From: a bacterium
GTDB lineage: Bacteria; UBP15; UBA6099; DSWB01
DNA length: 24,320 bases
NCBI GenBank assembly: GCA_020061125.1
Contig: JAGUYV010000469.1
Location: 1-24,320 of the forward strand
Reading direction: 5' to 3'
The notes beneath the pieces were generated by a model, which worked only from the letters and a program-made list of their open reading frames with translations, had not been told where the DNA came from and searched no databases. Position 1 is the stretch's first letter; every line of letters starts with the position of its first letter. The position numbers and the translations under genes are program-made. Shown here piece after piece: positions 1 to 24,320 of this stretch.

Positions 1-157
1 CCAGGCAGTCCAGCGCCCCGTCTCCGCCGTCCGAGATGGGCGCCTGATCCACGCTCACGCCCGGAATGCTCTTCTTGAGCGCGCGCGCAATGATGCGGCC
101 CGCCTCCACCGAGGTCAGACTGCCCTTGAACGGGTTGCACGCCACAAGGATGTTCAT
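1..157 (-). CDS. Glycerate kinase, N-terminal fragment (runs off the left edge)
   Basis: Only the first 52 codons are present. The protein begins MNILVACNPFKGSLTSVEAG and continues to APISDGGDGALDCL. The N-terminal (D/N)xFKGSL segment and the DGGDG loop about 35 residues later are characteristic of the GarK/GlxK glycerate kinase family, which phosphorylates D-glycerate to 2-phosphoglycerate in the cytoplasm using ATP. The ATG lies 5 bases downstream of the sugar transferase stop on the same strand. A GAGG ribosome-binding site sits inside the last codons of that gene, so the two are probably cotranscribed and perhaps translationally coupled. The rest of the gene is outside the window, so integrity cannot be judged. 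Confidence 0.85.
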   Translation of the reverse strand, partial: MNILVACNPFKGSLTSVEAGRIIARALKKSIPGVSVDQAPISDGGDGALDCL

Positions 158-162
158 AAGCC

Positions 163-1488
163 TCACGCCTGCCGGGTACCGAATGTCAACCGCAGTATGT
201 GCTGCACGGTCTGGTACATGATCGCGAAGTCCAGCAGGGGATGATAGTTGTGAATGTAGAGCAGGTCGTATTTGAGCTTCATGTCCGCGTCCGAGTCGTA
301 CAGGCCGTTGACCTGCGCCAGGCCGGTCATGCCCGGCAGCACCTGCTTGCGCTCCCTGTACGCTGGGTTGCGGGCCTCGAACTCCTGCACGAAATCCAGG
401 CGCTCGGGGCGCGGCCCCACCAGGCTCATCTGCCCGAGGATGACATTGAAAAGCTGGGGCAGTTCGTCAATTTTTGTCTGGCGTAGGATTTTGCCCACGG
501 GCGTGACGCGCGGGTCCGAGCGCGCGGCCAGCACAGGCCCGGTGTGCTTTTCCGCATCCGCCACCATGGTGCGCAGCTTGACGATGCGGAACAGGCAGCC
601 ATTTTTGCCGACCCGCTCCTGGGTGTAGAAGGCCGGGCCGCGCGAGGTGAGCTTCACGGCCAGCGCGCCCAGCGCAAGCACGGGCAGGGCCGGTATCAGC
701 AGAAGCGCGGACAGGGCCAGATCCATAAGCCGCTTGAGCAGCAGCATGCGCCGCAGGATGGGTTTTTTGGACATGAAAATCAGCGGCACATCTCCCAGCA
801 CCGTGTGGTGCAGCGCGCCCGCCACGATGTCGCACGCCTCGGGCACCATGTACACGGACACTCCCGGGTGCTTGAGGATAATATCGAAGCCCAGGGCGCG
901 CGTGCCGCGCATGCTGTCCGTGATGATCACGCAGTCCGCGCCCTGGGCTTTAATGGCTTGGTGCAGGGCGTCGGCGTCGCACTGGGGCAGGGACGCGGCG
1001 TGCGCGAACCGTTTGCGCGGGTCCGCGGCGATGAACTGCTCCAGGCTTGCAATCCTTTCCTGGTTGCCGTAAAGAATCACGCGCCGCACGGGCAGTCCGC
1101 GCAGAAACCGGTCCTGCGCGAAAATGCGGAACACGGAAAACGCCAGAAGCAGGCACAGGTAGGACAGGATGAAAACCGTGCGGGGAAACGCGAAGTCGCG
1201 GCTGATGAAGGTAAGCGCGATGATGCCTATGGTGCCGAAGGATACGGAAGTAAACACCTTGAAAAAGATGCTTAATGCGTCGTCGTCCTCGTTGTTGTCG
1301 TACAGGCCCTGCACATAAAACAGCACGATGTAAACCAGGGTGATGTATTCCCAGGTGTTGTAGTACGCCCGGATGTTGCGCTCGGGCACGAACCCGAGAA
1401 AGCGGATGGAAAAGGTCGCCAGAATACAGCCGTTGACGAGCAGTGCGTCAATCAGCGCAAGAGCCAGCGGATGTCTCCAGAGTTTCAA
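163..1488 (-). CDS. Polyprenyl-phosphate sugar-1-phosphate transferase (WbaP/WcaJ-like, long form)
   Basis: Membrane enzyme that starts exopolysaccharide or O-antigen repeat synthesis by moving a sugar-1-phosphate from a nucleotide sugar to undecaprenyl phosphate. Numbered from the TTG at 1488 (441 aa), it has about four N-terminal membrane segments (roughly 8-32, 48-63, 83-95, 105-123), a Rossmann-like middle domain (135-239), and a membrane-anchored catalytic domain from 250 on. The catalytic domain carries FRIVKLRTM, the Asp341-Glu342 dyad in KIDELPQL, VGPRPE (357-362) and LPGMTGLAQVNG, the hallmarks of the bacterial sugar transferase family (PF02397). There is no ATG near the start. The frame is open to a TTG at 1530 (455 aa) that lacks a ribosome-binding site, whereas the TTG at 1488 has GAGG 8 bases upstream and begins just before the first membrane helix. 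The exact sugar cannot be read from sequence. Confidence 0.9.
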   Translation of the reverse strand: MKLWRHPLALALIDALLVNGCILATFSIRFLGFVPERNIRAYYNTWEYITLVYIVLFYVQGLYDNNEDDDALSIFFKVFTSVSFGTIGIIALTFISRDFAFPRTVFILSYLCLLLAFSVFRIFAQDRFLRGLPVRRVILYGNQERIASLEQFIAADPRKRFAHAASLPQCDADALHQAIKAQGADCVIITDSMRGTRALGFDIILKHPGVSVYMVPEACDIVAGALHHTVLGDVPLIFMSKKPILRRMLLLKRLMDLALSALLLIPALPVLALGALAVKLTSRGPAFYTQERVGKNGCLFRIVKLRTMVADAEKHTGPVLAARSDPRVTPVGKILRQTKIDELPQLFNVILGQMSLVGPRPERLDFVQEFEARNPAYRERKQVLPGMTGLAQVNGLYDSDADMKLKYDLLYIHNYHPLLDFAIMYQTVQHILRLTFGTRQA

Positions 1489-1587
1489 TCGTGCAGCCTC
1501 ATTCCAATGCGGTGCAGCGCGCAAACGCAAAACAACGGCGCGCGCCGCGCCAGGGCCGTATCCGCCCCTGCTTGAAAAACGATTTCA

Positions 1588-1616
1588 ATTATAAGGGTTT
1601 CCGGATCTCATTGCAA
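1588..1616 (-). promoter_or_regulatory. Sigma70-type promoter for the sugar transferase gene
   Basis: On the minus strand, TTGCAA (1616-1611), a 17-base spacer and a perfect TATAAT (1593-1588). The start point would be near 1581, leaving a leader of about 90 bases to the TTG at 1488. Spacing is ideal and the -35 matches 4 of 6. Confidence 0.55.
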
Positions 1617-1662
1617 AAACGCGCGCGCGAATTCTAAATAAACAGGCGGGCGCACGAGCCGC

Positions 1663-1668
1663 TATAAT
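1663..1668 (+). promoter_or_regulatory. Perfect -10 element (TATAAT) upstream of the radical SAM gene
   Basis: TATAAT lies 35 bases before the ATG at 1704. No convincing -35 is found 16-18 bases upstream, so this is a partial promoter call and may need an activator. Confidence 0.4.
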
Positions 1669-1703
1669 GACACTAAAGACAGTGGCGAGAGGTGATGCGG
1701 CCC

Positions 1704-2576
1704 ATGCAGTACGACGAACCCCTGTTCCGGCCTCCGAGCGAGGCCCATTCCCTGATCCTCCAGGCCACGCTTGGCTGCTCCAACAACACCTGCCTGTTCT
1801 GCGGCATGTACAAGATGAAAAAATTCAAGGTGCGGCCGTTCGAGGCGTTCAAAAAAGATGTTCTCGAATGCGCGCAATACATGCCCGGCGCGCGGCGCAT
1901 CTTTTTGGCCGATGGCGACGCCCTGGTCATGAGCATGTCCCATTTCACAAAAGTCTTGCGTCTGCTCTATGCAAAATTTCCGAATTTGGAACGCGTGACC
2001 TGCTACGCCAATCCCATCAATCTGCTCAACAAAAGCATGGGCGAGCTGCGCCAGCTCCGCGAGGAAGGGCTGGACATCCTCTACCTGGGCATGGAGTCGG
2101 GCAACGACGAGGTGCTAAAAAGAATCGCCAAAGGCTCAACACGAGCGGAAATTCTCGAAGCGGGCCGCAAGGCGCTGGACGCCGGGTTCCCCCTGTCCGT
2201 CACGGTCATCCTCGGGCTTGGCGGCAGGAAATTGTCCGAGGCGCACATCCGCGACACCGCGTCCCTGTGCTCGGAGTTGAACCCCACATATTTGAGCGCG
2301 CTCACGCTCATGCTCGGCCCGCTCGAGGGCTATTTCGCCAAAACCCAGGGGCCGGATTTCGATTTTCTGGACAAGCTGGACATGCTGCGCGAGGTGCGCG
2401 GACTGGTGAGCGCGCTCGAAACAAGCGGCACGGTGTTCCGCACCAACCATGCGTCCAATTATCTTCCGCTCAAAGGCGTGTTGAGCCGGGACCGCGCGCA
2501 ACTGCTGTCCGCCATTGACGCGGCCCTCGCCGACCCGGACAGGTATCTCAAGCCGGAATTCCTGCGCGCGTTGTGA
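1704..2576 (+). CDS. Radical SAM protein (COG1032-like) with a CX4CX2C cluster motif
   Basis: Cytoplasmic iron-sulfur enzyme that would cleave S-adenosylmethionine to a 5'-deoxyadenosyl radical; the substrate is unknown. Numbered from ATG 1704 (290 aa), the cluster cysteines are C25, C30 and C33 in LGCSNNTCLFCGMYK. The spacing is therefore CX4CX2C rather than the canonical CX3CX2C. A later YLGMESGNDEVLKRI segment is the usual radical SAM beta-strand with Gly and Glu contacts to SAM, and TVILGLGG is another conserved core strand. There is no B12-binding domain and no extra cluster domain; the length is that of a bare radical SAM core plus a short tail. Start choice is uncertain: GTG 1692, ATG 1695 and ATG 1704 are all in frame. 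I prefer 1704 because GAGAGG (1687-1692) is 11 bases upstream, while it is too close to 1695. Confidence 0.85.
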   Translation: MQYDEPLFRPPSEAHSLILQATLGCSNNTCLFCGMYKMKKFKVRPFEAFKKDVLECAQYMPGARRIFLADGDALVMSMSHFTKVLRLLYAKFPNLERVTCYANPINLLNKSMGELRQLREEGLDILYLGMESGNDEVLKRIAKGSTRAEILEAGRKALDAGFPLSVTVILGLGGRKLSEAHIRDTASLCSELNPTYLSALTLMLGPLEGYFAKTQGPDFDFLDKLDMLREVRGLVSALETSGTVFRTNHASNYLPLKGVLSRDRAQLLSAIDAALADPDRYLKPEFLRAL

Positions 2577-2611
2577 GGGCGGACGCGGCCGCCTCGCAAA
2601 CCTCGTTCGAG

Positions 2612-2640
2612 TTGATGATCCCCCTTCGGGCTGATACCAT
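2612..2640 (+). promoter_or_regulatory. Candidate sigma70 promoter for hldD
   Basis: TTGATG (2612-2617), a 17-base spacer, then TACCAT (2635-2640). Each hexamer matches 4 of 6. The predicted start near 2647 gives a leader of about 64 bases. No terminator was found between the radical SAM gene and hldD, so readthrough is also possible. Confidence 0.35.
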
Positions 2641-2710
2641 ATTAAAAACCGGCGCGAACAGATTTTCGCGTCCCTTTGCGGTTCAATCTCATTTTTAAGG
2701 AGCAGTCCCC

Positions 2711-3673
2711 ATGTACATCGTCACCGGGGCCGCGGGTTTCATCGGCAGTGAAATCGTCAAGGCGCTCAACGACAGGGGCGTCACCGACATCCTGGCTGTG
2801 GACGACCTGTCCAACGGCCAGAAAATCTTCAACCTCAACGATTGCCGGTTCTCGGACTACATGGACATGGACGATCTTCTGGACGCCATGGAGGGCAACG
2901 CCTTCGGCAAGGTTACGGCCATCCTGCACCAGGGCGCATGCTCGGACACCATGGAATACGACGGCCGTTACATGATGGATGTGAATTTTTCCTATTCCAA
3001 ACAGGTGCTGAACTACGCGGCCGCGAACAGGATTCCACTCGTGTACGCGTCCAGCGCGTCAACCTACGGCAACAACACCACATTCGTCGAGGATCCCGAA
3101 AACGAAAAACCCATCAATGTGTACGCCTTTTCCAAATATGCGTTTGACATGCATGTGCGCAGCCGCATGAAGTATCTGGAATCCACAGTCGTGGGCCTGC
3201 GCTATTTCAATGTGTACGGGGTTCGCGAAACCTTCAAGGGCCGCATGGCGTCCATGGTGTATCAGCTTTACAAGCAGTTGCGCAACACGGGCGTGGCCAA
3301 ATTGTTTGAGGGCACGGACGGGTATCCGGACGGAGGCCAGGAGCGCGACTTCGTGTTCGTGGGGGATGTGGCCAAAGTGAATCTGTTCTTCGCCCAGGGA
3401 CCGGCGCGCCAGGGCATTTTCAACACGGGCACGGGAGCGGCGCGCTCCTTCAACGACATCGCAAGCACCCTCATCAAACTTATGGGCAAAGGCCGCATCG
3501 AGTACATTCCGTTCAACGCCACGCTCAAGGGCAAGTACCAGAGTTTCACGCAGGCGGATGTGTCGGCGCTGCGCGCAGCGGGTTACTCCGCGCCCTTCGC
3601 CACCCTGGAGCAGGGCATCGAGGAATGTTACGAGCAATGGGAAGCGCGTGCGGGCGCGCTGCCCGAAGACTAG
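2711..3673 (+). CDS. hldD: ADP-L-glycero-D-manno-heptose 6-epimerase
   Basis: Converts ADP-D-glycero-beta-D-manno-heptose to the L-glycero form, the last step in making the heptose donor for the LPS inner core, in the cytoplasm with bound NADP. The 320-residue protein follows the family along its whole length (E. coli RfaD/HldD is 310). It has the Rossmann loop TGAAGFIGS (5-13), HQGACSDT (73-80), the catalytic Tyr138-x3-Lys142 in YAFSK, RYFNVYG (164-170), the RDFVFVGDV strand (212-220) and LRAAGY near the end. A short Gly/Pro-rich insertion (about 201-210) precedes RDF compared with E. coli. AAGGAG lies 8 bases before the ATG. It shows that the organism builds a heptose-containing LPS core; no other LPS core gene lies in the window. 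Confidence 0.96.
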   Translation: MYIVTGAAGFIGSEIVKALNDRGVTDILAVDDLSNGQKIFNLNDCRFSDYMDMDDLLDAMEGNAFGKVTAILHQGACSDTMEYDGRYMMDVNFSYSKQVLNYAAANRIPLVYASSASTYGNNTTFVEDPENEKPINVYAFSKYAFDMHVRSRMKYLESTVVGLRYFNVYGVRETFKGRMASMVYQLYKQLRNTGVAKLFEGTDGYPDGGQERDFVFVGDVAKVNLFFAQGPARQGIFNTGTGAARSFNDIASTLIKLMGKGRIEYIPFNATLKGKYQSFTQADVSALRAAGYSAPFATLEQGIEECYEQWEARAGALPED

Positions 3674-3686
3674 GGCGCGGCGCCCT
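3672..3686. terminator. Short GC-rich inverted repeat between convergent genes
   Basis: AGGGCGC, one base, then GCGCCCT, covering the 16-base gap between the hldD stop and the response regulator stop. It lacks a T-run on either strand, so termination is a guess from position only. Confidence 0.25.
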
Positions 3687-3689
3687 GCA

Positions 3690-4088
3690 TCAGCCCACGA
3701 CCGACGCGCGCGCCACGGCGTAGCGTAGCGAGCGCACAAGCTGGTACCCGTCTATGAATCCCTTGACAAGATAATCCTGCGCGCCCTGCTGCACGGCCTG
3801 CACCGCGGTTTTTTCATCGTCGTTGCCCGTGAGCACCACGATGGGCGTGTCCCCGGCCTTGTCCCGCAGACGGTAAAAGGTTTCGATGCCGTGGCTGTCG
3901 GGTAGCCACAGGTCGGACAAAACAATGTCCGCATCCTCGCGGTCCAGAGCCTCGAAGGCCTGTGTCAGCCGCAGGCAATGCGTAATCAGAAACCCCTCGC
4001 CGCCGAATTCAAGCAGCATTTCCGAAATCAGATCCGCATCTCCTGCATTGTCCTCAATCAGCAATAACTTGATGTTCCGTTCGCTCAT
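3690..4088 (-). CDS. Single-domain response regulator (receiver only)
   Basis: A 132-residue CheY-like receiver with no output domain. It begins MSERNIKLLLIEDNAGDADL. The acidic pair is E12-D13, the phospho-acceptor is D59 in LSDLWLPDSHG, the switch Thr is T87 in VVLTGND, and the conserved Lys is K109 in YLVKG. The start at 4088 is fixed by a strong GGGGGAGG site 6 bases upstream; the frame is open further upstream, but that part overlaps the preceding gene. The gene overlaps the preceding receiver gene by 35 bases and is the last of three genes transcribed from the histidine kinase. It probably relays phosphate or acts by protein contact. Its output partner cannot be read from the sequence. 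Confidence 0.92.
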   Translation of the reverse strand: MSERNIKLLLIEDNAGDADLISEMLLEFGGEGFLITHCLRLTQAFEALDREDADIVLSDLWLPDSHGIETFYRLRDKAGDTPIVVLTGNDDEKTAVQAVQQGAQDYLVKGFIDGYQLVRSLRYAVARASVVG

Positions 4089-4527: not shown

Positions 4528-7256
4528 GACCCTGCCTCCCTGTCTGGAATGGTGAAGAAGAATGTTGACCCCTGGCCCTGGCCGGATTCGACCCAGATGC
4601 GGCCGTGGTGGTGTTCCACGGCTTTTTTGCATACGGACAGACCGATGCCCGTTCCCTGAAATTCGTCCCTGGTGTGAAGCCGCTGGAAGATTTTGAAGAT
4701 GCGCTCGTGGTGCTCGGGCGGAATGCCGATGCCGTTGTCGCTCACCGAGAACACCCATTCGCCGTGGCCGCGTTCCGCGCTCACATGGACATGCGGCGCG
4801 GGATCCGTGCAGTATTTCAGGCCGTTGGCCACAAGGTTCTGCAACAACTGGCCCAGCAGCGCCGGGGCCGCCTGCACTTCGGGTAGGTCCGAATATGTGA
4901 TCCGCGCGTTTTTCTCGCTCACGGTCGCGCTCAAGTCGCCGGCAATGCGCTCGATCAGCGCGGTGCAGTCCACGGTTTCGAAATCGCCGTTCACACGGCC
5001 CACGCGCGAATAATCCAGAAGCGCGGAGATGAGTTTCTGCATGCGCATGGCGCCGTCCACGGCGTAGCCGATGAACTTGTCCGCCTTTTCGTCGAGCTGG
5101 CCCTTGTAGCGCCGCTCCAGGAGCTGCATATAGCTGACCACCATGCGCAGAGGCTCCTTGAGGTCATGCGAGGCCACATAAGCGAATTCTTCCAGCTCTC
5201 TGTTGGATCGTTCCAAATCGTCCATGGCCTGGCGCAACTGCTCGCGCGCTTTGTTCCGTTCCGTGATGTCGCGGATGATGCCGACCGCGCCCCAGCCGCG
5301 GGGCAGCCTGCGCGCGGCCAGAGACATCTCGATGGGGAACCGGTCTCCGTTTTTGTTGATTGCGGCCAGCTCCAGGGTTTTCCCAACCGCGGCGCCCTCG
5401 CCGGTCTTCTGGAACGAAGCGAACGCCTTGCCGTGCGCCTCGTGAAATTCGGCAGGCGCCAGAAGCCGGTGCAGATTTTGTCCGGTTGCTTCTTCCTGCG
5501 AATATCCGAACATGCGCGCGGCCGCGGGATTCCAGAACGAGATGTCTCCCTCTTCGTCAATCATGACGATGGCGTCCTGCGTGGTGTCCGTGATTGTCCG
5601 CAAGCGCCCTTCGCTCAATCGCAGGGCGTCGTCCGCCAGTTTCTGCTCCGTGATGTTGTTGTGGGAAATGACCGCGAGCGGGGAATCCGAACCCTGAAGC
5701 GGGCGCACGATCATTCTGAACCAGCGGAGTTCGTCCGGGCTGTGGCAGGGGTATTCGAGCCGGAATTCATCGAGCTTGCCATCCAGAACAAGGCGGATGC
5801 CGTGCGCGGCGTCGTGCGCCAGGGCGTCGCCCTGGCGCGCCGCGGCTTCGCACACCTGAAAGTAGTTCCAGTCCTTGTAATCTCCGCGCCCGCCGTTTTC
5901 CCCGGAGAACCGGTCCCACGCCGCGTTGGTGTAGCGGATTGAACCCCGGCCGTCGAGGATGCAGATGTTGCTGGAAAGCGAATCAAGAATGGACGACACG
6001 AACCGCTCCTGGTGCGCGATGCGCCGCTCCATGGCCTTGCGTTCGGTGATGTCCACGGTAATGCCGAGCAGGCCGCCCACGCTGCCGTCGGGATTGTTGA
6101 AGGTGGCTTTGTGGAAGATGACATCGCGCGGCCCGGTGCGGGGATTGTTCATCTGCCCCTCATAGGCATGGCGGCCCGGTTCACGCAGGAGTTTGGTGTC
6201 GGCTTCATGGTACACTTCAGCCAGTTGCCGAGGCCAGAGGTCGAACACGGTTTTGCCCGCAAGCTGTTCGCGGGGCGTGCCCGCATGTTCCTCGAACGCC
6301 TTGTTGCAGCCCAGATACCGGCCTTTTTCGTCTTTGTAGAACACGGGCGCGGGGATGGTGTCGAGCAGCGTGTTCAGAAACATGTTTCTGGCTTCGAGTT
6401 CCATCTCCGCGTATTTCAGATTCGTAATATCAAAACCGGTGACCAGCGCCTGTCTGGCCCCTGTCTGGTCCCGGTACGCTTTCAAGAAAATCTTGTGAAT
6501 ACGGCCCCGCGCGTCCGCGCACTCGCGGGTCATTTCTTGACCGTTTGCCGCGTCGTCGAACAATTTCTGGATTGGGCAATCCGGGCACGGCGCCGCACGG
6601 CCCCAGAGGATGTCGTGGCATTTCCTGTTTGCATGCGCGCCGAAATGTTTCGTGAATACACTGTTGGCGTAGCGCACGGTGAGGGACTGATCAATGGAAC
6701 AGATGAACGCGTTCGTGGTTTCGAGCAGTGTGTTGAATTTTCTGCGTTCGGCCTCCAGCGCCTGCTGCGCCTTTTGCGCATCCTCGATGTTGCGGAACAC
6801 GCCCTGGATGATGTCGCGGCCGTTGATGCGGGTTCCCGAAACCGAAATCTGCACCGGAATCTCGCGTCCGGACGCGTGCGCCACCACTGCCTGCCTGCGG
6901 CCTGTAATGCCTCCCGAGGCGTGCTGCTCGAACATCTCGCGGTAGAAGTCGCGCCTGTTTGCAGGATGCAGATCCATCTGGGACATGCCCAGCAGCTCGC
7001 TTCTGGGCCGGCCCATGAGGTCCTCGGCCGCGCGATTCACGCGCACTATGATTCCCGTGGCGGCGTCAGCCCAGAAAATCGCGTCCAGCGCATTCTCGAA
7101 CGCCAGCCGGAATTCCTGGTCCGTGTCCGCATGCGCGCAGTCCGGCGCCGGAAGCAGCGACGCCGCGGCCGCGGCGCTGCCGTTGCCTTCAGGCGCGCCG
7201 GATTCCCCGCGGGCCTGGCCATTACCACAATCCTTGCGCTCTGAATCGGTCCCCAT
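4524..7256 (-). CDS. Soluble multi-PAS sensor histidine kinase (five PAS domains, HisKA, HATPase)
   Basis: A 910-residue cytoplasmic kinase with no membrane segment. PAS-like domains lie at about 47-160, 170-281, 288-404, 411-537 and 547-665, most ending in the typical DIT-type strand (e.g. VDITERK). The second contains C213 and a CPDC pair (C224, C227). The dimerisation/phospho-acceptor region has H697 in YVASHDLKEPLR. The ATPase domain shows an N-box (N807, N811), DNGIGI (840-845), an F-box (IFKIFQRLH) and GTGIGL (868-873). The start at 7256 is chosen because GAGGAG lies 5-6 bases upstream. The frame stays open to TTG 7409 and includes ATG 7289, but neither has a ribosome-binding site. It heads the operon with two receiver genes and is divergent from an NtrC-type regulator. 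The signal is unknown; no heme or flavin motif stands out. Confidence 0.94.
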   Translation of the reverse strand: MGTDSERKDCGNGQARGESGAPEGNGSAAAAASLLPAPDCAHADTDQEFRLAFENALDAIFWADAATGIIVRVNRAAEDLMGRPRSELLGMSQMDLHPANRRDFYREMFEQHASGGITGRRQAVVAHASGREIPVQISVSGTRINGRDIIQGVFRNIEDAQKAQQALEAERRKFNTLLETTNAFICSIDQSLTVRYANSVFTKHFGAHANRKCHDILWGRAAPCPDCPIQKLFDDAANGQEMTRECADARGRIHKIFLKAYRDQTGARQALVTGFDITNLKYAEMELEARNMFLNTLLDTIPAPVFYKDEKGRYLGCNKAFEEHAGTPREQLAGKTVFDLWPRQLAEVYHEADTKLLREPGRHAYEGQMNNPRTGPRDVIFHKATFNNPDGSVGGLLGITVDITERKAMERRIAHQERFVSSILDSLSSNICILDGRGSIRYTNAAWDRFSGENGGRGDYKDWNYFQVCEAAARQGDALAHDAAHGIRLVLDGKLDEFRLEYPCHSPDELRWFRMIVRPLQGSDSPLAVISHNNITEQKLADDALRLSEGRLRTITDTTQDAIVMIDEEGDISFWNPAAARMFGYSQEEATGQNLHRLLAPAEFHEAHGKAFASFQKTGEGAAVGKTLELAAINKNGDRFPIEMSLAARRLPRGWGAVGIIRDITERNKAREQLRQAMDDLERSNRELEEFAYVASHDLKEPLRMVVSYMQLLERRYKGQLDEKADKFIGYAVDGAMRMQKLISALLDYSRVGRVNGDFETVDCTALIERIAGDLSATVSEKNARITYSDLPEVQAAPALLGQLLQNLVANGLKYCTDPAPHVHVSAERGHGEWVFSVSDNGIGIPPEHHERIFKIFQRLHTRDEFQGTGIGLSVCKKAVEHHHGRIWVESGQGQGSTFFFTIPDREAGS

Positions 7257-7289
7257 TGCAGCTCCTCTTAGTAATTTGTCATTTTCCAT

Positions 7290-7305
7290 GTCAAGAATCG
7301 TGCCA
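7290..7305 (-). promoter_or_regulatory. Sigma54-like promoter upstream of the histidine kinase operon
   Basis: Minus strand TGGCACG-N4-TTGAC: a perfect -24 half and correct spacing (10 bases between GG and the -12 dinucleotide), but GA instead of GC at -12. The start point would fall near 7279, about 23 bases before the kinase ATG and after the alternative ATG at 7289, which agrees with 7256 as the true start. Confidence 0.5.
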
Positions 7306-7324
7306 TGCGCGGCATCGGCGCATG
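7304..7324. repeat. Inverted repeat overlapping the kinase -24 element
   Basis: CATGCGC, 7 bases, GCGCATG: a perfect 7-bp dyad of operator size. It touches the first bases of the sigma54-like -24 element of the kinase operon. It could bind a regulator that blocks or positions polymerase; no family is recognised. Confidence 0.5.
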
Positions 7325-7522
7325 CGACTGCCAACCGAAATTTCAAATCCTGCGCATTCACAGATGTTTTGTTAAATCGGCAACAAGGATTTTGCGGTAA
7401 CCAATGCAAATCACAGTAGCATTCGAGTCACAATGTAGCAGCCGGACTCCTGCAAACTTGTGCTTTCACGACACTATGATGCGAAACGACATCTGCAAGC
7501 ACGGAATATTTTTGCTTACAGG

Positions 7523-7551
7523 TGGACTTTGCGTAGCCAATGAGGTACAAT
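7523..7551 (+). promoter_or_regulatory. Candidate sigma70 promoter reading toward the NtrC-type regulator
   Basis: TGGACT (7523-7528), a 17-base spacer, TACAAT (7546-7551); matches of 4 and 5 of 6. It would give a leader of nearly 300 bases before the regulator start, or a short untranslated RNA. Confidence 0.35.
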
Positions 7552-7629
7552 CAAAACACTGGACCCGGCTCTGGCGTATTGAAATTGCTGCATTGTCGCA
7601 CTTGTGCTTCACTCGGCTTGCCGGCATTT

Positions 7630-7644
7630 CTGCAAAAATTGCAG
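7630..7644. repeat. CTGCAA-AAA-TTGCAG inverted repeat
   Basis: A perfect 6-bp dyad with a 3-base centre, 43 bases upstream of the sigma54-like element at 7688. It shares the CTGCAA word with single copies at 7450 and 7493. Possible activator binding site. Confidence 0.4.
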
Positions 7645-7687
7645 CTTTTGTTGGGGGGGGCGCAAAAGTGGCTGCGGCTGCGGGGGC

Positions 7688-7703
7688 TGGCACTGATTTT
7701 GAT
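7688..7703 (+). promoter_or_regulatory. Sigma54-like promoter upstream of the NtrC-type regulator
   Basis: TGGCAC-N5-TTGAT with exact -24/-12 spacing but GA rather than GC at -12. The predicted start near 7714 leaves a leader of about 135 bases. It has the same form as the elements before the kinase and the DUF342 gene, which suggests autoregulation. Confidence 0.4.
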
Positions 7704-7723
7704 TACACATTCTTCAAAAACAA

Positions 7724-7777
7724 AAGCGGCTCGGACCGCGGCTTGAGGACACTCGCATCAATCACCCAAAGCCGCTT
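7724..7777 (+). repeat. 8-bp inverted repeat in the regulator leader
   Basis: AAGCGGCT (7724-7731) and AGCCGCTT (7770-7777) are exact complements separated by 38 bases. If transcribed, they could close a stem-loop ending about 72 bases before the ATG at 7850. Confidence 0.35.
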
Positions 7778-7849
7778 CCCGGTCCCGGCGCAATCCCGGC
7801 CGGATTCATTCATAGAGCAGAAACCACGGTGAAAAGGAGAGTTCCGGGG

Positions 7850-9241
7850 ATGAACAATTCCATACTGCTGGTTGACGATGAAGATCTGGTGAGGCGGAGC
7901 ATCAAGGCGTTTCTTGCGGCCGAGGATTATACCGTGGAGGAAGCCTCGAGCGGCGAGGACGCGCTGCGTTTGCTCAATGACAAATATTTCGATCTCCTTC
8001 TGATTGATTTGCGCATGCCCGGCCTCACAGGCATCGAGGTGCTCGAGCGCCTGCGCATCATGCACAAAAAAACCGAGGTCATTCTCATGACCGGGTACGG
8101 CACCATAGACACGGCCGTGGAGGCCATTCGGGCCGGGGCGTTCGATTTCCTGTCCAAACCCATAGATTTCGACCGGCTGCTGGTGACCGTGCGCAACGCC
8201 ATGGAGAAAACCGAGTTGCGCCATCGCGTGGACGCCCTGGCCACCCAGGTGCAGAAGGAACTGAACCTGGACAACATCGTAGGCTCGAACATCATGATGC
8301 TGAAAATCTTCGACACCATCCGCCGCGTGAGCGACAGCGATGTGAATGTGCTCGTCACCGGCGAGAGCGGCACGGGCAAGGAACTGCTGGCCCGCGCCCT
8401 GCATGTGAACAGCCGCCGCAAGCAGGGGCCGTTCGTGCCGGTCAACTGCGTGGCCCTGTCGGAAAACCTGCTGGAGTCCGAACTGTTCGGGCATGAGAAG
8501 GGCGCGTTCACCGGAGCGGCGCAGCGCAAGCGCGGGTATTTCGAGGCCGCGGCCGGAGGCACGATTTTCCTGGATGAAATCGGCGACCTGTCCATGCCGC
8601 TTCAGGCCAAGCTGCTGCGCACCCTGCAGGAGCGCACCATCCAGCGCGTGGGCAGCACCGAACTCATCGAGGTGGATGTGCGCATCGTCAGCGCCACGAA
8701 CAAGAACCTGCAGGACCTCGTGTCGCAGGGCGCGTTCCGCGAGGATCTGTTCTACCGCCTCAATGTGCTGTCCCTGGAAATGCCGCCCCTGCGCCAGCGC
8801 AAAGACGACCTGCCCCGCCTGGCCCGGCATTTTCTCGAAAAATACGCGGCCCAGCAGTCCCGTCCCTCGCCCGCGCTCGACCCGGAAGCCGAGGAAACCA
8901 TTATGGCCTACAACTGGCCCGGAAACATCCGTGAGCTGGAGAATGTGATCCAGCGCGCCGTGGCCCTGTGCCAGGGACAAAGCATTGGCCGCGAGCATCT
9001 GCCCGGCCATCTCGCCAGCGCCGCACAAAACGGAGCGCGCACGGTGTCGTTTACGGGCGTGTCCTCATTCAAGGAAGCCAAGGCCCAGGTGATTGACGAG
9101 TTCGAGAAAAATTTCCTGTGCGAAGCCCTCAAGCAGCACCAGGGCAATGTGACCCGGGCCGCGGACGCCGTTGGCCTTGGCCGCACCGTCATGCAACGAA
9201 TGCTCAAGAATCACAGCATCGAATCCCGCGATTTCAAGTAA
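7850..9241 (+). CDS. Sigma54-dependent response regulator (NtrC family)
   Basis: 463-residue transcription activator with three domains. The receiver (about 4-118) has acidic D9-D10-E11, phospho-acceptor D53 in LIDLRMPG, T81 and K103. The AAA+ domain (about 142-370) has Walker A GESGTGKE (171-178), the sigma54-contacting GAFTGA loop (218-223), Walker B GGTIFLDEIGDL (237-248) and WPGNIREL. The C-terminal Fis-type helix-turn-helix runs from about 429 to 455 (NVTRAADAVGLGRTVMQRML). It would bind upstream sites and open sigma54 promoters. I start it at ATG 7850, with AAGGAG at 7834-7839; the in-frame GTG at 7829 lacks a ribosome-binding site. No kinase is on its own strand, so the divergent multi-PAS kinase is the likely phosphodonor. 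A strong terminator follows. Confidence 0.95.
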   Translation: MNNSILLVDDEDLVRRSIKAFLAAEDYTVEEASSGEDALRLLNDKYFDLLLIDLRMPGLTGIEVLERLRIMHKKTEVILMTGYGTIDTAVEAIRAGAFDFLSKPIDFDRLLVTVRNAMEKTELRHRVDALATQVQKELNLDNIVGSNIMMLKIFDTIRRVSDSDVNVLVTGESGTGKELLARALHVNSRRKQGPFVPVNCVALSENLLESELFGHEKGAFTGAAQRKRGYFEAAAGGTIFLDEIGDLSMPLQAKLLRTLQERTIQRVGSTELIEVDVRIVSATNKNLQDLVSQGAFREDLFYRLNVLSLEMPPLRQRKDDLPRLARHFLEKYAAQQSRPSPALDPEAEETIMAYNWPGNIRELENVIQRAVALCQGQSIGREHLPGHLASAAQNGARTVSFTGVSSFKEAKAQVIDEFEKNFLCEALKQHQGNVTRAADAVGLGRTVMQRMLKNHSIESRDFK

Positions 9242-16613: not shown

Positions 16614-16630
16614 GGCGTTATTTGAGCGGC

Positions 16631-17924: not shown

Positions 17925-17929
17925 GCGTC

Positions 17930-18597: not shown

Positions 18598-18626
18598 TTG
18601 AAAATGGAGCGGACACGCGGTATGTT
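18598..18626 (+). promoter_or_regulatory. Sigma70-type promoter for the TonB-dependent receptor
   Basis: TTGAAA (18598-18603), exactly 17 bases, TATGTT (18621-18626); matches of 5 and 4 of 6. The start near 18633 leaves a leader of about 120 bases that holds an inverted repeat. No clear Fur box was found. Confidence 0.55.
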
Positions 18627-18677
18627 TTGAGCGACATAACGAATCCGCGCCCGCACATGGCGCTGACCATAATAGAG

Positions 18678-18721
18678 CCTTGCACGCATTGCCGCGCTGA
18701 CTGTCCGGACTCGATGCAAGG
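18678..18721 (+). promoter_or_regulatory. Leader stem-loop upstream of the TonB-dependent receptor
   Basis: CCTTGCA (18678-18684) and TGCAAGG (18715-18721) are exact complements enclosing 30 bases that include a GTCCGGAC palindrome. The stem ends about 18 bases before the GGGAGGAG ribosome-binding site. It does not match the cobalamin, TPP or c-di-GMP riboswitch motifs I know. It could be a protein- or small-RNA-controlled leader. Confidence 0.35.
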
Positions 18722-18751
18722 AAAAACACAGAGTATCCAGGGAGGAGATTT

Positions 18752-20830
18752 ATGAGAAGGGTGAGCATGTACCTGCAAATGGCGGCTCTGCTGTGCGCGG
18801 CGCTGACAACCCCGTGCTTTGCGCAGAGCGCTCCCGAGGAAGAAGCCATTGACCTCGGGGAAATCACCATCACGGCAACCAAGAAACCCGAAAAAGTGGA
18901 AAATGTCAGCGAATCCGTGGAAGTCATCACCAAGGATCAGATTGCCGCCATGCCCGTGACCAATGTTGACGAGTTGATTGGCATGTTTGCGGGCGCGGTT
19001 TCGACGCGTGACGACGGCAACAGCGACGCCAGGGGCGGGCTGATGCTGCGCGGCCAGGACACCGGCTCGGGCCGCGTGCTGGTGCTCGTGGACGGCATGA
19101 TTCTCAACAACGGCGATTCCGGCACTGCGAATTTCAACACCGTGGACATTGACAATGTCGAGCGCATCGAAGTGATCCGCGGCGCGTCGTCGGTCATGCA
19201 CGGCACCAACGGCATGGGCGGCATCGTGAACATCATCACCAAGGCCCCGGACACCGGCGAGTGGAAGGCCAAGACCAACCTGAAAGCCGGCGGAAGGAAC
19301 ACTTACACGCAAAAACTATTCCTCGAAGGCGGCCTGTCGCGCAATCTGGCCCTGTCCTTTTCCGCGTCAAACAAACGCTCGGGTTCTTTTAACAGCGAAT
19401 TCCCCGAAGACCGCGACGCCGGAAATCAGGACCCGGAAAACACCACCATCGAGGAGCGCCGCTATTTCGTGAAAGCCGAGCAGTTCCTGGGAAGCGCCGA
19501 CACCTCGCTGACTTATTCCGTGGGCGTCTACGATGACGAGCGCCACCGCGGCGAAGCGTTCAATCTCACGAACAATCCCAACGGCTCCATGTGGAGTTTC
19601 GACACCCAGAGATATCAGATTGATTTCAGCAACCCCGGAGAGCGCTTCTCGGCGCGCGCATCCCTGGGCTACAACCTCGAAAAATACGAAAGCCTTTCCG
19701 AAAGACTGCGCAACAACCGATACACGCACTGGATCGTCAGCTCCGACAGGCTCAACTACGGTCTGGACGGAAGCATGGCCTGGACCGGCGACCGGCACGA
19801 TGTAACCGTGGGCGCGGGCTACTCCGTGGCCTCGCAGGACGCCAAGGACGACTATCAGTGGAACAACGACACGGATGTGCGCACTGATCCCACATTCGAC
19901 GCTTTCAACAAGGGCGATCTCGAAACCCTGTTCGCCTATGTCCACGACACGGTCGCGCTCACGGACGCCGCGGACCTTCAGATGGGCCTGCGCTTCGACG
20001 ACGCCAAGGTCAAGGACGCGTCCTACAATCTGTCCGGCTCCACCACGGTTGTGGCCCTCAATGGAAAAGGCTGGGACCATGTCAGCCCCAAGCTGGGCCT
20101 GATTCTGCACACGGGGCAGAACTCCCGCGTGCGCGTGCAATACAACCACGCGTTTCACGCGCCGAATCTGGAAAGCATGACGCTCAACATGCAGAGGGGC
20201 GGCTCTTTCTGGAACTCGAACCCGGACCTCAAGCCCGAAAAATCCGACTCCTACGAAATCGGGTTCGAGCACAACGGCAAAGGCTGGAAACACAGCATCA
20301 GCGCTTATTACAGCAAGGCCAAGGACTATATTGACATCATGGACTGCACCACGGCCATGGGCTGCAACATAGGCGATCGCAAGTACATGAATGTGGGCCA
20401 GGTGGATTTCAAGGGCCTGGAATTCGAGATGTCCCGGAAAGTGAATCCCAACACGCTCGTGTATTTCAACGCTTCCTACACCGATACCGAAGTCAAGGAT
20501 TATCCGTCCGACACGACCCTGGTGGGCAAGCGCCTGGCCTCGGTCCCGGAATTCACCGGCAATCTGGGCTGCACCTACGGCCGCCCGAACGACGAGAGCC
20601 TGGGCCTGAACCTGCGCTACACGGGCCTGGCCTACGACGACAACGCGAACACCGTGCCCCAGAAGGCTTACTACACCGCGGATGTCAGAGCCTCCAAATG
20701 GGTCTCCAAAACCGACGCCGTGGAACTGCAGATCAACAACATTTTCAAACCTATCCGCCTGGCCGGCAGCAGCAGCGACTACCGCCTGCCCGGCGTGGTC
20801 TTGACTCTCGGCTACACAAGGCTGTACTGA
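18752..20830 (+). CDS. TonB-dependent outer-membrane receptor
   Basis: 692 residues. A signal peptide ends near CFA|QS (about residue 24). It is followed by a TonB-box-like EITITATK (37-44). A plug domain (about 48-160) contains ESVEVITKDQIAAMP, LMLRGQDTGSGRVLVLVDG and VERIEVIRGASSVMHGTNGMGGIVNIITK, the standard plug signatures. A 22-strand-type beta-barrel follows with HAFHAPNLESMTLN, NPDLKPEKSDSYEIGFEH and the terminal strand VVLTLGYTRLY, ending in an aromatic. The plug features resemble siderophore/cobalamin receptors, but the ligand cannot be assigned. A pair of Cys (MDCTTAMGC) lies in a predicted surface loop. GGGAGGAG precedes the ATG. The next gene is a periplasmic diheme protein. No TonB, ExbBD or ABC importer is in the window. 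Confidence 0.95.
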   Translation: MRRVSMYLQMAALLCAALTTPCFAQSAPEEEAIDLGEITITATKKPEKVENVSESVEVITKDQIAAMPVTNVDELIGMFAGAVSTRDDGNSDARGGLMLRGQDTGSGRVLVLVDGMILNNGDSGTANFNTVDIDNVERIEVIRGASSVMHGTNGMGGIVNIITKAPDTGEWKAKTNLKAGGRNTYTQKLFLEGGLSRNLALSFSASNKRSGSFNSEFPEDRDAGNQDPENTTIEERRYFVKAEQFLGSADTSLTYSVGVYDDERHRGEAFNLTNNPNGSMWSFDTQRYQIDFSNPGERFSARASLGYNLEKYESLSERLRNNRYTHWIVSSDRLNYGLDGSMAWTGDRHDVTVGAGYSVASQDAKDDYQWNNDTDVRTDPTFDAFNKGDLETLFAYVHDTVALTDAADLQMGLRFDDAKVKDASYNLSGSTTVVALNGKGWDHVSPKLGLILHTGQNSRVRVQYNHAFHAPNLESMTLNMQRGGSFWNSNPDLKPEKSDSYEIGFEHNGKGWKHSISAYYSKAKDYIDIMDCTTAMGCNIGDRKYMNVGQVDFKGLEFEMSRKVNPNTLVYFNASYTDTEVKDYPSDTTLVGKRLASVPEFTGNLGCTYGRPNDESLGLNLRYTGLAYDDNANTVPQKAYYTADVRASKWVSKTDAVELQINNIFKPIRLAGSSSDYRLPGVVLTLGYTRLY

Positions 20831-20863
20831 AGGAGCACCGACCGGAACTGTTTCATTGTCTGC

Positions 20864-20909
20864 TTCCAGAGGAACCGGATGTGCGGTATAATGGAACCAC
20901 ACCATCCGG
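20864..20909 (+). promoter_or_regulatory. Promoter with flanking inverted repeat between receptor and diheme genes
   Basis: A perfect TATAAT (20887-20892) with a weak -35 (TTCCAG at 20864-20869, 17-base spacer). CCGGATG (20875-20881) and CATCCGG (20903-20909) form an exact inverted repeat centred on the -10, as an operator would. The start would be near 20899. Two terminator hairpins follow before the next gene. Confidence 0.5.
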
Positions 20910-20911
20910 AA

Positions 20912-20940
20912 ACTCTGACCGTAATGCGGTTAGTGTTTTT
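20912..20940 (+). terminator. First leader hairpin with T-run
   Basis: ACTCTGACCG-TAATG-CGGTTAGTGT pairs over 10 positions with one T.T mismatch and one G.U, followed by TTTT. It is terminator-like and sits immediately after the promoter at 20887. Confidence 0.5.
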
Positions 20941-20948
20941 CTCATCGG

Positions 20949-20981
20949 GGGGAACGGGTTGCGCTGCCCGTTCCCCTTTTT
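20949..20981 (+). terminator. Strong intrinsic terminator upstream of the diheme gene
   Basis: GGGGAACGGG (20949-20958) and CCCGTTCCCC (20967-20976), a perfect 10-bp stem with an 8-base loop and five Ts. It ends transcription from the receptor gene. It also lies downstream of the only visible promoter for the diheme gene, so it may act as an attenuator. Confidence 0.9.
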
Positions 20982-21024
20982 CTTCGAACCCGCCTGAATC
21001 TGTGCATGAAAGGAAAATCTTATC

Positions 21025-22185
21025 ATGAAATTATCCAAAAGATTGTTCTCTCCTGTGGCGGCGCTGCTGCTCATCGGCGTCATGGCCGGGCTGGGCCGCG
21101 CCGCGTACATCGGCCACAAGGACCCGGACATGCCCGTGTTTCTGTCGGTTTATCCGGACGCCAAAGGCACGGCCATTGACGACTGCGCCACCTGCCACCG
21201 CACGGGAGAAGCTCCTGTTCCGGGCGATCCCCTGGGCCGCACGGCGCAGGTCAATTCCTGCGATTTTTGCCATGCGGCCATGAAAATGAACAACGGCAAG
21301 CCGCTGAACACGCTCAATCCCTTCGGCCGCGAGTTCATGCGCCACGGACGCAGCGCCGCGGCGCTCAAAGGCATGGCCGCCCTGGACTCGGACGGCGACG
21401 GCGTGTCCAACGCCGACGAAATCGCCGCGCGCACCCTGCCCGGAGACCCGGACAGCGTCCCCTCCATGCCTCTGGCGCCCTCGGTCACGCTGACTCTGGA
21501 CCAGATGATCAAATCTCTTGCCGTGATTGATGTCCCGCTGTTCATGAATGTGTCGAAATCTCCGGACGGAGACCGTTATGATGACCTGCGCGGTTTCCTG
21601 CTCATTGATGTGCTCAAGGCCGCGGGCATGAGCGAATCCGCCACGAGCGTGGATGTGATCAGCGTTGACGGGTACGCGAAAACATTCACCATCGAGCAAC
21701 TGCGCGTCATGTATCCGCAGTCCGCGCCTGTGTTCGGACTCGGGGAAAAGGAACTGGGCGAATGCTGGATCGTGAAATACTTCGCCAAGGGACTGGTCGA
21801 GGGCGCGCCCCTGCCTCCGGCGGGCGTGATGCTCACATACGAAATGAACGGCGAACCTTATGACAGCGCCATCATGGTTCCCGAGACCGGCAAACTGCGC
21901 GGCTCAGGGCCGCTGCGCGTCACAGGCCCGCAAATGATTCAGCCCGGCCCTCCGGACCTGTCCTCAAAAGCGCCCGAATCCTGCAACGATGTGGTTCCAA
22001 GAGTGTATCAGTACCACAGAGACGGGTACGAAAAAAATTCCGATTACTGCGTCAAGGCCGTGGTGGCCCTGCGCGTGAATCCCATGCCCAAAGGCATGCG
22101 CGCCCCGCACTGGCAGCCGGACGCCATGAAGCACATCTCCGGGCGCAGCCTCATCGTGTACGGCGCGCTGGACAAAAAGAACTGA
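21025..22185 (+). CDS. Secreted diheme cytochrome with Ca-binding motif and molybdopterin-oxidoreductase-like domain
   Basis: 386 residues. A signal peptide (about 1-26, GLGRA|AY) is followed by two c-type heme sites, C54-A-T-C57-H58 and C79-D-F-C82-H83. Next comes a calcium-loop motif, DSDGDGVSNADEI (121-133), as in dockerin/thrombospondin type 3 repeats. The remainder (about 155-320) has LTLDQMIKSL, GFLLIDVLKAAGM, TSVDVISVDGYAKTFTIEQL and MLTYEMNGEPYDSAIM. This resembles the fold of the oxidoreductase molybdopterin-binding (sulfite oxidase-like) domain without an obvious cofactor Cys; that similarity is by eye. AGGA lies 10 bases before the ATG. It probably acts in the periplasm as an electron-transfer or redox-sensing partner. 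Its place right after a TonB-dependent receptor suggests uptake or reduction of a metal or heme ligand, which is inference. Confidence 0.85.
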   Translation: MKLSKRLFSPVAALLLIGVMAGLGRAAYIGHKDPDMPVFLSVYPDAKGTAIDDCATCHRTGEAPVPGDPLGRTAQVNSCDFCHAAMKMNNGKPLNTLNPFGREFMRHGRSAAALKGMAALDSDGDGVSNADEIAARTLPGDPDSVPSMPLAPSVTLTLDQMIKSLAVIDVPLFMNVSKSPDGDRYDDLRGFLLIDVLKAAGMSESATSVDVISVDGYAKTFTIEQLRVMYPQSAPVFGLGEKELGECWIVKYFAKGLVEGAPLPPAGVMLTYEMNGEPYDSAIMVPETGKLRGSGPLRVTGPQMIQPGPPDLSSKAPESCNDVVPRVYQYHRDGYEKNSDYCVKAVVALRVNPMPKGMRAPHWQPDAMKHISGRSLIVYGALDKKN

Positions 22186-22222
22186 CGCGCGGGCTTCACT
22201 CCTCCAAACGCTGTTCCCCGGG

Positions 22223-22252
22223 GACCGCGGGCCTCAAGGCCCGCGGTCTTTT
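22223..22252 (+). terminator. Strong intrinsic terminator after the diheme gene
   Basis: GACCGCGGGCC-TCAA-GGCCCGCGGTC, a perfect 11-bp stem, followed by TTTT. Confidence 0.93.
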
Positions 22253-22279
22253 GACTTGAAACCGCCGCGCCGTTAAGAT
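22251..22279 (+). promoter_or_regulatory. Sigma70-type promoter of hisC
   Basis: TTGACT (22251-22256), 17 bases, TAAGAT (22274-22279); matches of 5 and 4 of 6. The -35 shares its first bases with the T-run of the preceding terminator. The start near 22286 gives a leader of about 60 bases. Confidence 0.65.
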
Positions 22280-22347
22280 TATTCTCTGATTACGGCCACC
22301 GCGCGCAATTCCGCGGCCGGACTTCCCGAACGGAAAGGATCCCCGTC

Positions 22348-23448
22348 ATGGACTGGAGCAAAATCGCCAATCAGCATCTTCTCGAAATATCTCCCTATGT
22401 GCCCGGAAAACCCGTGGAGGAAGTGCAGCGCGAGCTGGGCCTGGATACGGTGCACAAGCTCGCGTCCAACGAGAACATCCTGGGGCCTTCGCCCAAAGCG
22501 GTCGAGGCCATCCGGAACGCGGCCGCGCAGGTGAATTTCTACCCCGACGGGAGCTGCTACTACCTCGTGGACGCTTTGGCGAAAACGCACGGGGTCGAGC
22601 CGTCGCAGATCGTGATCGGCAACGGCACGGACGAAGTCATCCGCCTGCTGTGCAACGCGCTCCTGGGGCCGGACGGAAATGTGGTGTACGCGCACCCCTC
22701 GTTCGTGATGTACAAGATTTCCTCCATGGTCATGGACGCGCAGCGCATCGAGGTTCCGCTCAAGGACACCTACACGCACGACCTCGACGCCCTGGCCGCG
22801 GCGGTCACGGACAAAACGCGCATGGTCTTTGTCTGCAACCCCAACAACCCCACCGGCACCATTGTGAAAAAGGCGGCTGTGGACGCCTTCCTGGACAAAC
22901 TGCCCCAGGGCGTGCTGGCCGTGTTCGACGAAGCGTATTTCGAATATGTCGAGGATCCGGAATATCCGGACTCGCTGGATTATTTCAAGGCGGGCCGCGC
23001 CGTGGTGTGCCTGCGCACCTTCAGCAAGGTGTACGGCCTTGCCGGGCTGCGCGTGGGATACGGCATCATGGATTCGAGCCTTGCGGGCGTGCTGCACCGC
23101 GTGCGCAATCCGTTCAATGTGAACGCCCTGGCCCAGGCCGCTGCCGTGGCCGCGCTCGGCGACGCCGATCATCTGGCCGCCGCGCGCAAGTTCAACTCGG
23201 ACGGCAAAAATTATCTGCATGCGGAATTCGACCGGATGGGCCTGTCCTACGCCGCGTCCGAGGCCAACTTCGTGCTTGTGGACATCAAACGCGACGCCCA
23301 GGCAGTGTTCGAAACCCTGCTGAAAAAGGGCGTGATCGTGCGGCCCGGTAAGTTCCTGGGATTCCCCACGCATCTGCGCGTATCCATCGGAGACCAGGCC
23401 GGCAATCAGGCGTTCATCAAGGCGCTTGAGGAAATTCTCGGTTCCTGA
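22348..23448 (+). CDS. hisC: Histidinol-phosphate aminotransferase
   Basis: 366-residue PLP enzyme that interconverts imidazole acetol phosphate and histidinol phosphate with glutamate in histidine synthesis; some members also accept aromatic substrates. It shows KLASNENILGPSPKA (37-51), FYPDGSCYYL (64-73), GNGTDEVI (91-98), CNPNNPTG (163-170), FDEAY with PLP-binding D194, and TFSKVYGLAGLRVGY with the Schiff-base Lys K227 and phosphate-binding R235. Near the C-terminus NFVLVDI and HLRVSIG complete the fold I aminotransferase pattern. AAAGGA lies 8 bases before the ATG. It is a single gene with its own promoter; no other his gene is in the window, so the his genes are dispersed here. Confidence 0.95.
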   Translation: MDWSKIANQHLLEISPYVPGKPVEEVQRELGLDTVHKLASNENILGPSPKAVEAIRNAAAQVNFYPDGSCYYLVDALAKTHGVEPSQIVIGNGTDEVIRLLCNALLGPDGNVVYAHPSFVMYKISSMVMDAQRIEVPLKDTYTHDLDALAAAVTDKTRMVFVCNPNNPTGTIVKKAAVDAFLDKLPQGVLAVFDEAYFEYVEDPEYPDSLDYFKAGRAVVCLRTFSKVYGLAGLRVGYGIMDSSLAGVLHRVRNPFNVNALAQAAAVAALGDADHLAAARKFNSDGKNYLHAEFDRMGLSYAASEANFVLVDIKRDAQAVFETLLKKGVIVRPGKFLGFPTHLRVSIGDQAGNQAFIKALEEILGS

Positions 23449-23463
23449 TAATTCAATTATTCT

Positions 23464-23478
23464 TGACAGCGCGTGTCA
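23464..23478. terminator. Short hairpin between convergent hisC and TPR genes
   Basis: TGACA-GCGCG-TGTCA, 5-bp arms, overlapping the TPR gene stop. The T-run is poor on both strands; weak candidate only. Confidence 0.25.
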
Positions 23479-24320
23479 GCGGTCGAGCGCTTGCATGAGT
23501 ATGCGGGAATTTTCTTCCGCCTGAATGCGGCGCGGGTCCGAAGGGGGCAGGGCGTCCCGGATGCGCGCGAGGTTGAGTTTAAGCAATTCGATTTCCGGCG
23601 GCGACAGGCGGCGCTTGTCGAAGAGCGTGTTGGCCAGGGCAAGGCGCGCGTCAAGGTAATGCGGGTCCAGCTTTATGGCTTTCATCAGGTTCATGGCCGC
23701 CAGATGATACTGTTTGTTTTCATGATGCACAAGCCCGAGATTGTAATATGTGTATTTGACCTTGGGGTCGAGCCTGATGGCGTTCTGGTACGCGTGGATC
23801 GCCAGTTCGCTGCGGCCCAGATCCGCGTAAGCGCGGCCGAGCGCGATCCAGGCCTGAAAATTGATCGGGTCCAATCCGCGGGCTTCTTCGAGAACCACGC
23901 GCGCCTCACGCGCGCGGCCGCGTTCAAGCAGAGCCTGCCCCAGATTCACATAAGGCCGCGCGCAGTCCGGGCAGCACCCGATGGTGTCCGACCAGAGGGA
24001 CACACTGTCGCGCCACACCGCGGTGCGTTGCACGGTCATGGCGCCGAACCCAAGACAGATTAGAGCCAGAAAGACCGCGTACCCGGAGCGCACGCGCGGC
24101 CCCGGCAGCGCAAATCCGCGCGGGCGCTCGAGCAGCAGAGCCGCGGCCGCCATGCACAGCCCCGCGTTCGTCATATACGCGTAGCGCTCGGAAAACACAG
24201 CGCCGAACGGCACAATATTGGACACGGGCGCGAACGCGAACAGGAAGAAGAAAATTCCAAAACTCACGCACGGCAGAATCCGGCGCGCCGCGGGCGCGCA
24301 CACGCACAGCAGCCCGGCCA
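23476..24320 (-). CDS. Membrane/TPR protein of TMTC type, C-terminal part (runs off the right edge)
   Basis: The visible 280 residues are the end of a polytopic protein. They have hydrophobic segments LPCVSFGIFFFLFAF, NAGLCMAAAALLLE and YAVFLALICLGFGA. Between the first two is FAPVSNIVPFGAVFSERYAYM, and after the third comes WRDSVSLWSDTI...CP, the pattern of TMTC-like multi-membrane glycosyltransferase-related proteins. About four tetratricopeptide repeats follow: PYVNLGQALLERGRAREA, AWIALGRAYADLGRSELA, TYYNLGLVHHENKQYHLA, and ARLALANTLFDKRRLSPP (irregular). The frame stays open to the window edge, so the start lies outside. Related proteins are thought to use a lipid-linked sugar or to organise surface complexes; the function here is unknown. 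Confidence 0.8.
   Translation of the reverse strand, partial: AGLLCVCAPAARRILPCVSFGIFFFLFAFAPVSNIVPFGAVFSERYAYMTNAGLCMAAAALLLERPRGFALPGPRVRSGYAVFLALICLGFGAMTVQRTAVWRDSVSLWSDTIGCCPDCARPYVNLGQALLERGRAREARVVLEEARGLDPINFQAWIALGRAYADLGRSELAIHAYQNAIRLDPKVKYTYYNLGLVHHENKQYHLAAMNLMKAIKLDPHYLDARLALANTLFDKRRLSPPEIELLKLNLARIRDALPPSDPRRIQAEENSRILMQALDR

What the first reader, a model, noticed from the sequence alone, without database searches (positions are those of the whole stretch)
1..24320. The tetranucleotide ACGT is absent from the whole 24.3 kb
I read every CGT in the window and the base before it. CGT preceded by C, G or T occurs several hundred times, but ACGT not once. At about 60% G+C, base composition alone would predict roughly 80 copies. 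Codon choice follows this: Asp, Asn, His and Tyr before a Val codon are T-ending (for example GATGTG, AATGTG, CATGTG, TATGTC) although C-ending codons dominate elsewhere. It spans all genes and intergenic DNA, including hisC and hldD, so it is a host property and not a mark of one island. Other CG-containing palindromes (TCGA, CCGG, GCGC) are plentiful, so it is not general CpG loss. Two explanations fit: restriction of unmodified ACGT (the specificity of MaeII/HpyCH4IV-type enzymes), or 5-methylcytosine at ACGT decaying to ATGT/ACAT. The frequent ATGT and ACAT words favour the second.
Basis: partly seen in the sequence, partly recalled or inferred. Interest (0 to 1): 0.85.

Follow-up and report, generated by a model that had tools for sequence, protein, structure and literature searches.

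The report
Genome purged of the word ACGT
This bacterium has removed the four-letter DNA word ACGT from nearly its whole genome, most likely because it carries a restriction-modification system whose enzyme would cut that word, and the pattern of replacements points to selection against the word and not to chemical decay of a methylated base.

Summary
The window has 0 ACGT where 59 are expected. In 604 kb of contigs of the same 4.1 Mb draft genome that were not picked for containing ACGT, there are 24 against 1,444 expected. Six related genomes of the same order are normal. All coding frames and noncoding DNA are depleted. At least 8 of the 24 survivors lie in 16S rRNA, a tRNA and 6S RNA. Contig C128 carries the only cytosine-5 methyltransferase found in the draft, followed by a DUF4928 protein (a PADLOC Type II restriction-enzyme family) and a Vsr mismatch endonuclease. 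A 62-64% identical pair sits in an ACGT-depleted genome of another phylum. Codon evidence opposes it: Thr codons before T show no surplus of ACA, and the A|CGT frame, where deamination would change Arg, is depleted too (1 against 43). Best explanation: long-lasting avoidance of the site of an ACGT-specific Type II system. This is a known phenomenon, here unusually deep. Specificity is inferred, and one depleted genome (G191) lacks the operon.

The parts
1..24320 (.). Whole window (G000 contig C233): no ACGT on either strand. Ordinary chromosomal genes: sugar transferase, radical SAM, NAD-dependent epimerase, PAS histidine kinase, sigma-54 response regulator, FapA, 2-oxoacid:ferredoxin oxidoreductase subunits, acyltransferase, TonB receptor and others.
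   Evidence: The causal genes are predicted outside the window, on G000 contig C128 (L120): m5C MTase 417-1541, DUF4928 nuclease 1463-2461, Vsr 2464-2868, all + strand.

Best explanation
The genome has long carried an ACGT-specific orthodox Type II restriction-modification system, most likely the C128 operon: a cytosine-5 methyltransferase, a DUF4928 restriction endonuclease and a Vsr endonuclease. The methyltransferase protects host ACGT by making m5C. Any ACGT left unmethylated, for example when modification is diluted or lost, risks cleavage by the nuclease. Over time selection removes ACGT wherever another codon or intergenic base will do. Only sites fixed by other constraints, such as rRNA and other structured RNAs, and recently arrived DNA such as a Mu-like prophage keep it; there methylation must protect them. 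Vsr would repair deaminated m5C, so decay contributes little. Shown: the depletion, its genome-wide reach, its depth in all frames, the proportional codon redistribution, the operon, and the co-occurrence in a second lineage. Inferred: that the operon's specificity is ACGT, that the DUF4928 protein cuts DNA, and that selection acts through self-restriction.
For: Operon anatomy and families: PF00145, PF16280 = PADLOC REase_II (E 2e-42), PF03852/TIGR00632 Vsr. It is the only PF00145 gene found in the draft genome. G323, of a different phylum, has a 62%/64% identical M/R pair as its only PF00145 gene found, and ACGT is its most depleted tetramer (5 against 45.5; 16 against 401 genome-wide). Same-order genomes G001-G006 had no DUF4928 match and are not depleted. 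All three frames and noncoding DNA are depleted: 1/357, 7/950, 1/43, 5/176. Missing ACG codons are redistributed in proportion, not into ACA. Survivors sit in 16S, tRNA and 6S RNA. Prophage-like contigs C259 and C8 keep 8 of 11 and 9 of 28 expected ACGT. Literature: avoidance of orthodox Type II sites is common and grows with lifespan in the genome (PMC4687349).
Against: G191, in the same genus as G323, is just as depleted (5 against 289) but has no detectable PF00145, DUF4928 or Vsr gene at 93% completeness. G324 is depleted without a DUF4928 relative. More distant carriers with 31-40% identical methyltransferases (G057, G199, G315, G040, G314) are not clearly depleted, nor are two plasmids with the methyltransferase and DUF4928 genes, so specificity cannot be read from the family. 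The operon is GC-poor (48% against 64% in its flank), which suggests later acquisition. The MAG is 79% complete, so another ACGT system may be missing from it. The codon test predicts poorly in one control set (G002-4).
Confidence: 0.66

Rival explanations
1. Mutational decay: m5C in ACGT deaminates to ATGT/ACAT faster than it is repaired, and this alone empties the genome of ACGT.
For: An m5C methyltransferase is present. In Helicobacter pylori, loss of m5C ACGT sites is heavily skewed to ATGT/ACAT (PMC10423294). AC|GT sites, the largest class, can only escape silently by C to T.
Against: No surplus of ACA among Thr codons before T, where decay predicts about 59% and 31% is seen; same direction in G323. 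The A|CGT frame, where decay costs an Arg, is also empty (1 against 43). ATGT/ACAT are not specially enriched. Vsr sits in the operon.
Confidence: 0.17
2. Avoidance caused by another or an earlier ACGT restriction system, lost or not assembled, with the C128 operon a bystander of different specificity.
For: G191 is depleted without any detected PF00145, DUF4928 or Vsr gene. Traces of lost systems are documented (PMC4687349). The operon is GC-poor, relatives with diverged methyltransferases are not clearly depleted, and the draft genome is incomplete.
Against: C128 is the only m5C restriction-type operon found. The N6/N4 methyltransferase genes on C172, C411 and C259 have no recognisable nuclease beside them, and C259 is phage-like. 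The closest relative of the operon sits in an independently depleted genome.
Confidence: 0.13
3. A composition or codon-context bias unrelated to restriction.
For: Mild ACGT depletion (0.76-0.78) occurs in order relatives.
Against: A 60-fold deficit at one palindrome, in every frame and in noncoding DNA, while TCGA, CCGG and GCGC are common.
Confidence: 0.03
4. A technical artefact, such as digestion during library making or a filter in the assembly.
For: The genome is a fragmented draft of 513 contigs.
Against: 16S, tRNA and prophage-like contigs keep ACGT, and codons compensate in frame.
Confidence: 0.01

Closest known systems
Avoidance of orthodox Type II restriction sites in host genomes (PMC4687349)
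   Same: A 4-bp palindrome strongly under-represented in a genome carrying a candidate Type II system; depletion also seen in a related genome without the system (G191), as in the paper's traces of lost systems.
   Different: The depth is extreme (ratio 0.017; the paper's under-representation threshold for palindromes is 0.78). The specificity is inferred, not annotated.
Helicobacter pylori ACGT / M.Hpy99XI (PMC10423294)
   Same: ACGT as the target of an m5C methyltransferase, with very few sites (53-295 per Mb; here about 40 per Mb).
   Different: The paper attributes loss mainly to deamination (ATGT/ACAT). Here codon redistribution and the A|CGT frame argue against decay as the main cause, and a Vsr gene is in the operon.
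DNA cytosine methyltransferase - DUF4928 - Vsr cassettes on proteobacterial plasmids and SGI1-related islands
   Same: Same gene order (M, DUF4928, Vsr) on Burkholderia plasmid NZ_CP019671; the same three genes listed together in SGI1-related elements (PMC9035990); DUF4928 about 54-57% identical.
   Different: Methyltransferase only about 37-41% identical. The two plasmids examined are not ACGT-depleted, so specificity may differ or acquisition be recent.
MaeII / HpyCH4IV / TaiI type enzymes (ACGT cutters, from general knowledge)
   Same: The proposed specificity.
   Different: No sequence comparison with these enzymes could be made here.

Membership tests
Type II restriction-modification system | Adjacent methyltransferase and restriction endonuclease genes | tested here: met
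   C128: PF00145 417-1541, DUF4928/REase_II 1463-2461, overlapping, same strand
Type II restriction-modification system | The nuclease cleaves the unmodified site | not testable with these tools
   Only a family match to PADLOC REase_II; no match to a solved structure
Type II restriction-modification system | Recognition sequence is ACGT | tested here: inconclusive
   Inferred from depletion in two genomes with the close pair (G000, G323); G191 and G324 are depleted without it
m5C DNA methyltransferase | C-5 cytosine methylase domain across the protein | tested here: met
   PF00145 positions 4-322 of 324, E 5.7e-42; TIGR00675
Vsr mismatch endonuclease | Vsr family profile over full length | tested here: met
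   TIGR00632 1-119 of 119, E 3.6e-46
Restriction-site avoidance | Site depleted genome-wide in coding and noncoding DNA, not in relatives lacking the system | tested here: met
   24 against 1,444; frames and noncoding; G001-G006 normal
m5C deamination decay | Missing sites reappear as ATGT/ACAT | tested here: not met
   ACA before T matches proportional redistribution, not decay; A|CGT frame also empty

The most novel reading that the evidence does not exclude
DUF4928 proteins of the close G000/G323 type are ACGT-specific restriction endonucleases in a three-gene M-R-Vsr operon, and Vsr protection plus strong self-restriction selection yields near-total, decay-free purging of a methylated word, in contrast to the deamination-driven loss in H. 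pylori.
Probability: 0.45. Interest if true: 0.5.

Novelty: new member of a known kind. Interest (0 to 1): 0.4.

Why it matters
It gives a testable specificity for an uncharacterised nuclease family (DUF4928), and a clean natural case for separating two causes of site loss, restriction avoidance and m5C decay, by codon-frame counts. A near-total purge also suggests that the system has been active in this lineage for a very long time.

Tried and rejected
Viral contigs and phages: no DUF4928 relative. The two plasmids with the methyltransferase and DUF4928 genes do not reveal a specificity. Nuclease structure: no solved relative by sequence; structure prediction was not tried because its stated rule does not list loci of this origin. 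The idea that any carrier of a DUF4928 operon is ACGT-depleted was rejected: G057 is normal by tetramer count (0.93) and G199 only mildly depleted (0.47).

Full report
Observation. The window holds no ACGT; a Markov model expects 59. It is contig C233 of a 4.12 Mb draft genome (G000, 79% complete, 513 contigs). Across 64 contigs (604 kb) not picked for containing ACGT there are 24 ACGT against 1,444 expected. A flanked pattern over the whole genome gives 9 against 462 for the reversed word, while six genomes of the same order give 171-425 against 234-587. By tetramer count G001 and G002-4 are at 0.76-0.78. The depletion is therefore genome-wide and specific to this lineage within its order.

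Where sites survive. On contig C30 all six ACGT lie inside the 16S rRNA gene (6724-8298; sites 6915-8131) and the rest of the contig has none. One lies in a tRNA-Ser gene on C3 and one in 6S RNA on C71. On C56, which was fetched because it held ACGT, two lie in tRNA-Tyr and tRNA-Thr genes. Contigs C8 and C259 have phage genes (Mu-like major head protein, tail tube, amidase/endolysin, a methyltransferase) and keep 9 of 28 and 8 of 11 expected. ACGT is thus tolerated but removed where free to change, and newly arrived DNA has not yet lost it. This also argues against an artefact.

Candidate cause. The only cytosine-5 methyltransferase found in the draft lies on C128 in an operon with a DUF4928 protein, which PADLOC lists as a Type II restriction enzyme, and a full-length Vsr. 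The flank of the operon is ACGT-free (0 against 7 expected), so the contig shares the genome's signature; the operon itself is GC-poor (48% against 64%) and holds one ACGT against 4.8 expected. Other methyltransferase genes (C172, C259, C411) have no recognisable nuclease beside them.

Independent lineage. Among 386 genomes searched with the DUF4928 protein, nine match (G000 included); besides G000, only G323 also has a close methyltransferase (62% for M, 64% for DUF4928). G323 is in another phylum, has no other PF00145 gene in the draft, and ACGT is its most depleted tetramer (5 against 45.5), 16 against 401 by pattern. Its Vsr is matched only over residues 1-74. Carriers with diverged methyltransferases are not clearly depleted. 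Two facts weaken the link: G191, of G323's genus, is depleted without any of the three genes, and G324 is depleted without a DUF4928 relative. Loss of a system with a lasting trace is documented (PMC4687349) and would account for G191, but this was not shown.

Avoidance or decay. Two codon tests separate selection from deamination. First, xxA|CGT: deamination there changes Arg to Cys or His, so decay should be checked by protein constraint; observed 1 against 43 expected. Second, Thr before a T-starting codon: ACG is forbidden. If lost by deamination it should appear as ACA, giving about 59% ACA among the remaining Thr codons; if avoided, ACA/ACC/ACT keep their proportions (35/49/16%). Observed: 31/53/17%. 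The best-fitting fraction moved to ACA is zero and the log-likelihood difference is 180 in favour of avoidance; G323 agrees (6.4 units). The context correction comes from Ala, Pro and Ser codons and is imperfect: it misfits in the G002-4 control. Long re-equilibration of codon usage could soften a decay signal, so decay is made unlikely, not excluded. The neighbours ATGT and ACAT are no more enriched than TCGT, ACGA or ACGG.

Comparison. H. pylori shows a similar scarcity of ACGT under the m5C enzyme M.Hpy99XI, which its authors ascribe mainly to deamination (PMC10423294). The M-DUF4928-Vsr arrangement is known on plasmids and genomic islands without an assigned specificity in the sources I could reach. 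The phenomenon is a deep instance of known restriction-site avoidance.

Noticed in passing
G000:C8 (L146) and G000:C259 (L148): Contigs with Mu-like phage genes (major head gpT, tail tube, amidase/endolysin, N6/N4 methyltransferase) keep much more ACGT than the rest of the genome.
   Followed up: partly
G324 (L141-L144): A 35% GC genome with no DUF4928 relative lacks ACGT and GCGC altogether in 46 kb and is poor in GTAC, GATC and GGCC: several avoided palindromes at once.
   Followed up: no
G191: Genus mate of G323, ACGT-depleted (5 against 289) without detectable M, DUF4928 or Vsr genes; possibly a trace of a lost system.
   Followed up: partly
L133:2430-2700: In G323 the Vsr gene is matched only over residues 1-74 and then runs into unrelated sequence, so it looks truncated.
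   Followed up: no
window and G000 in general: CTAG is also rare (1 against 11 in the window; ratio 0.21 in 405 kb of the genome), as in many bacteria.
   Followed up: no
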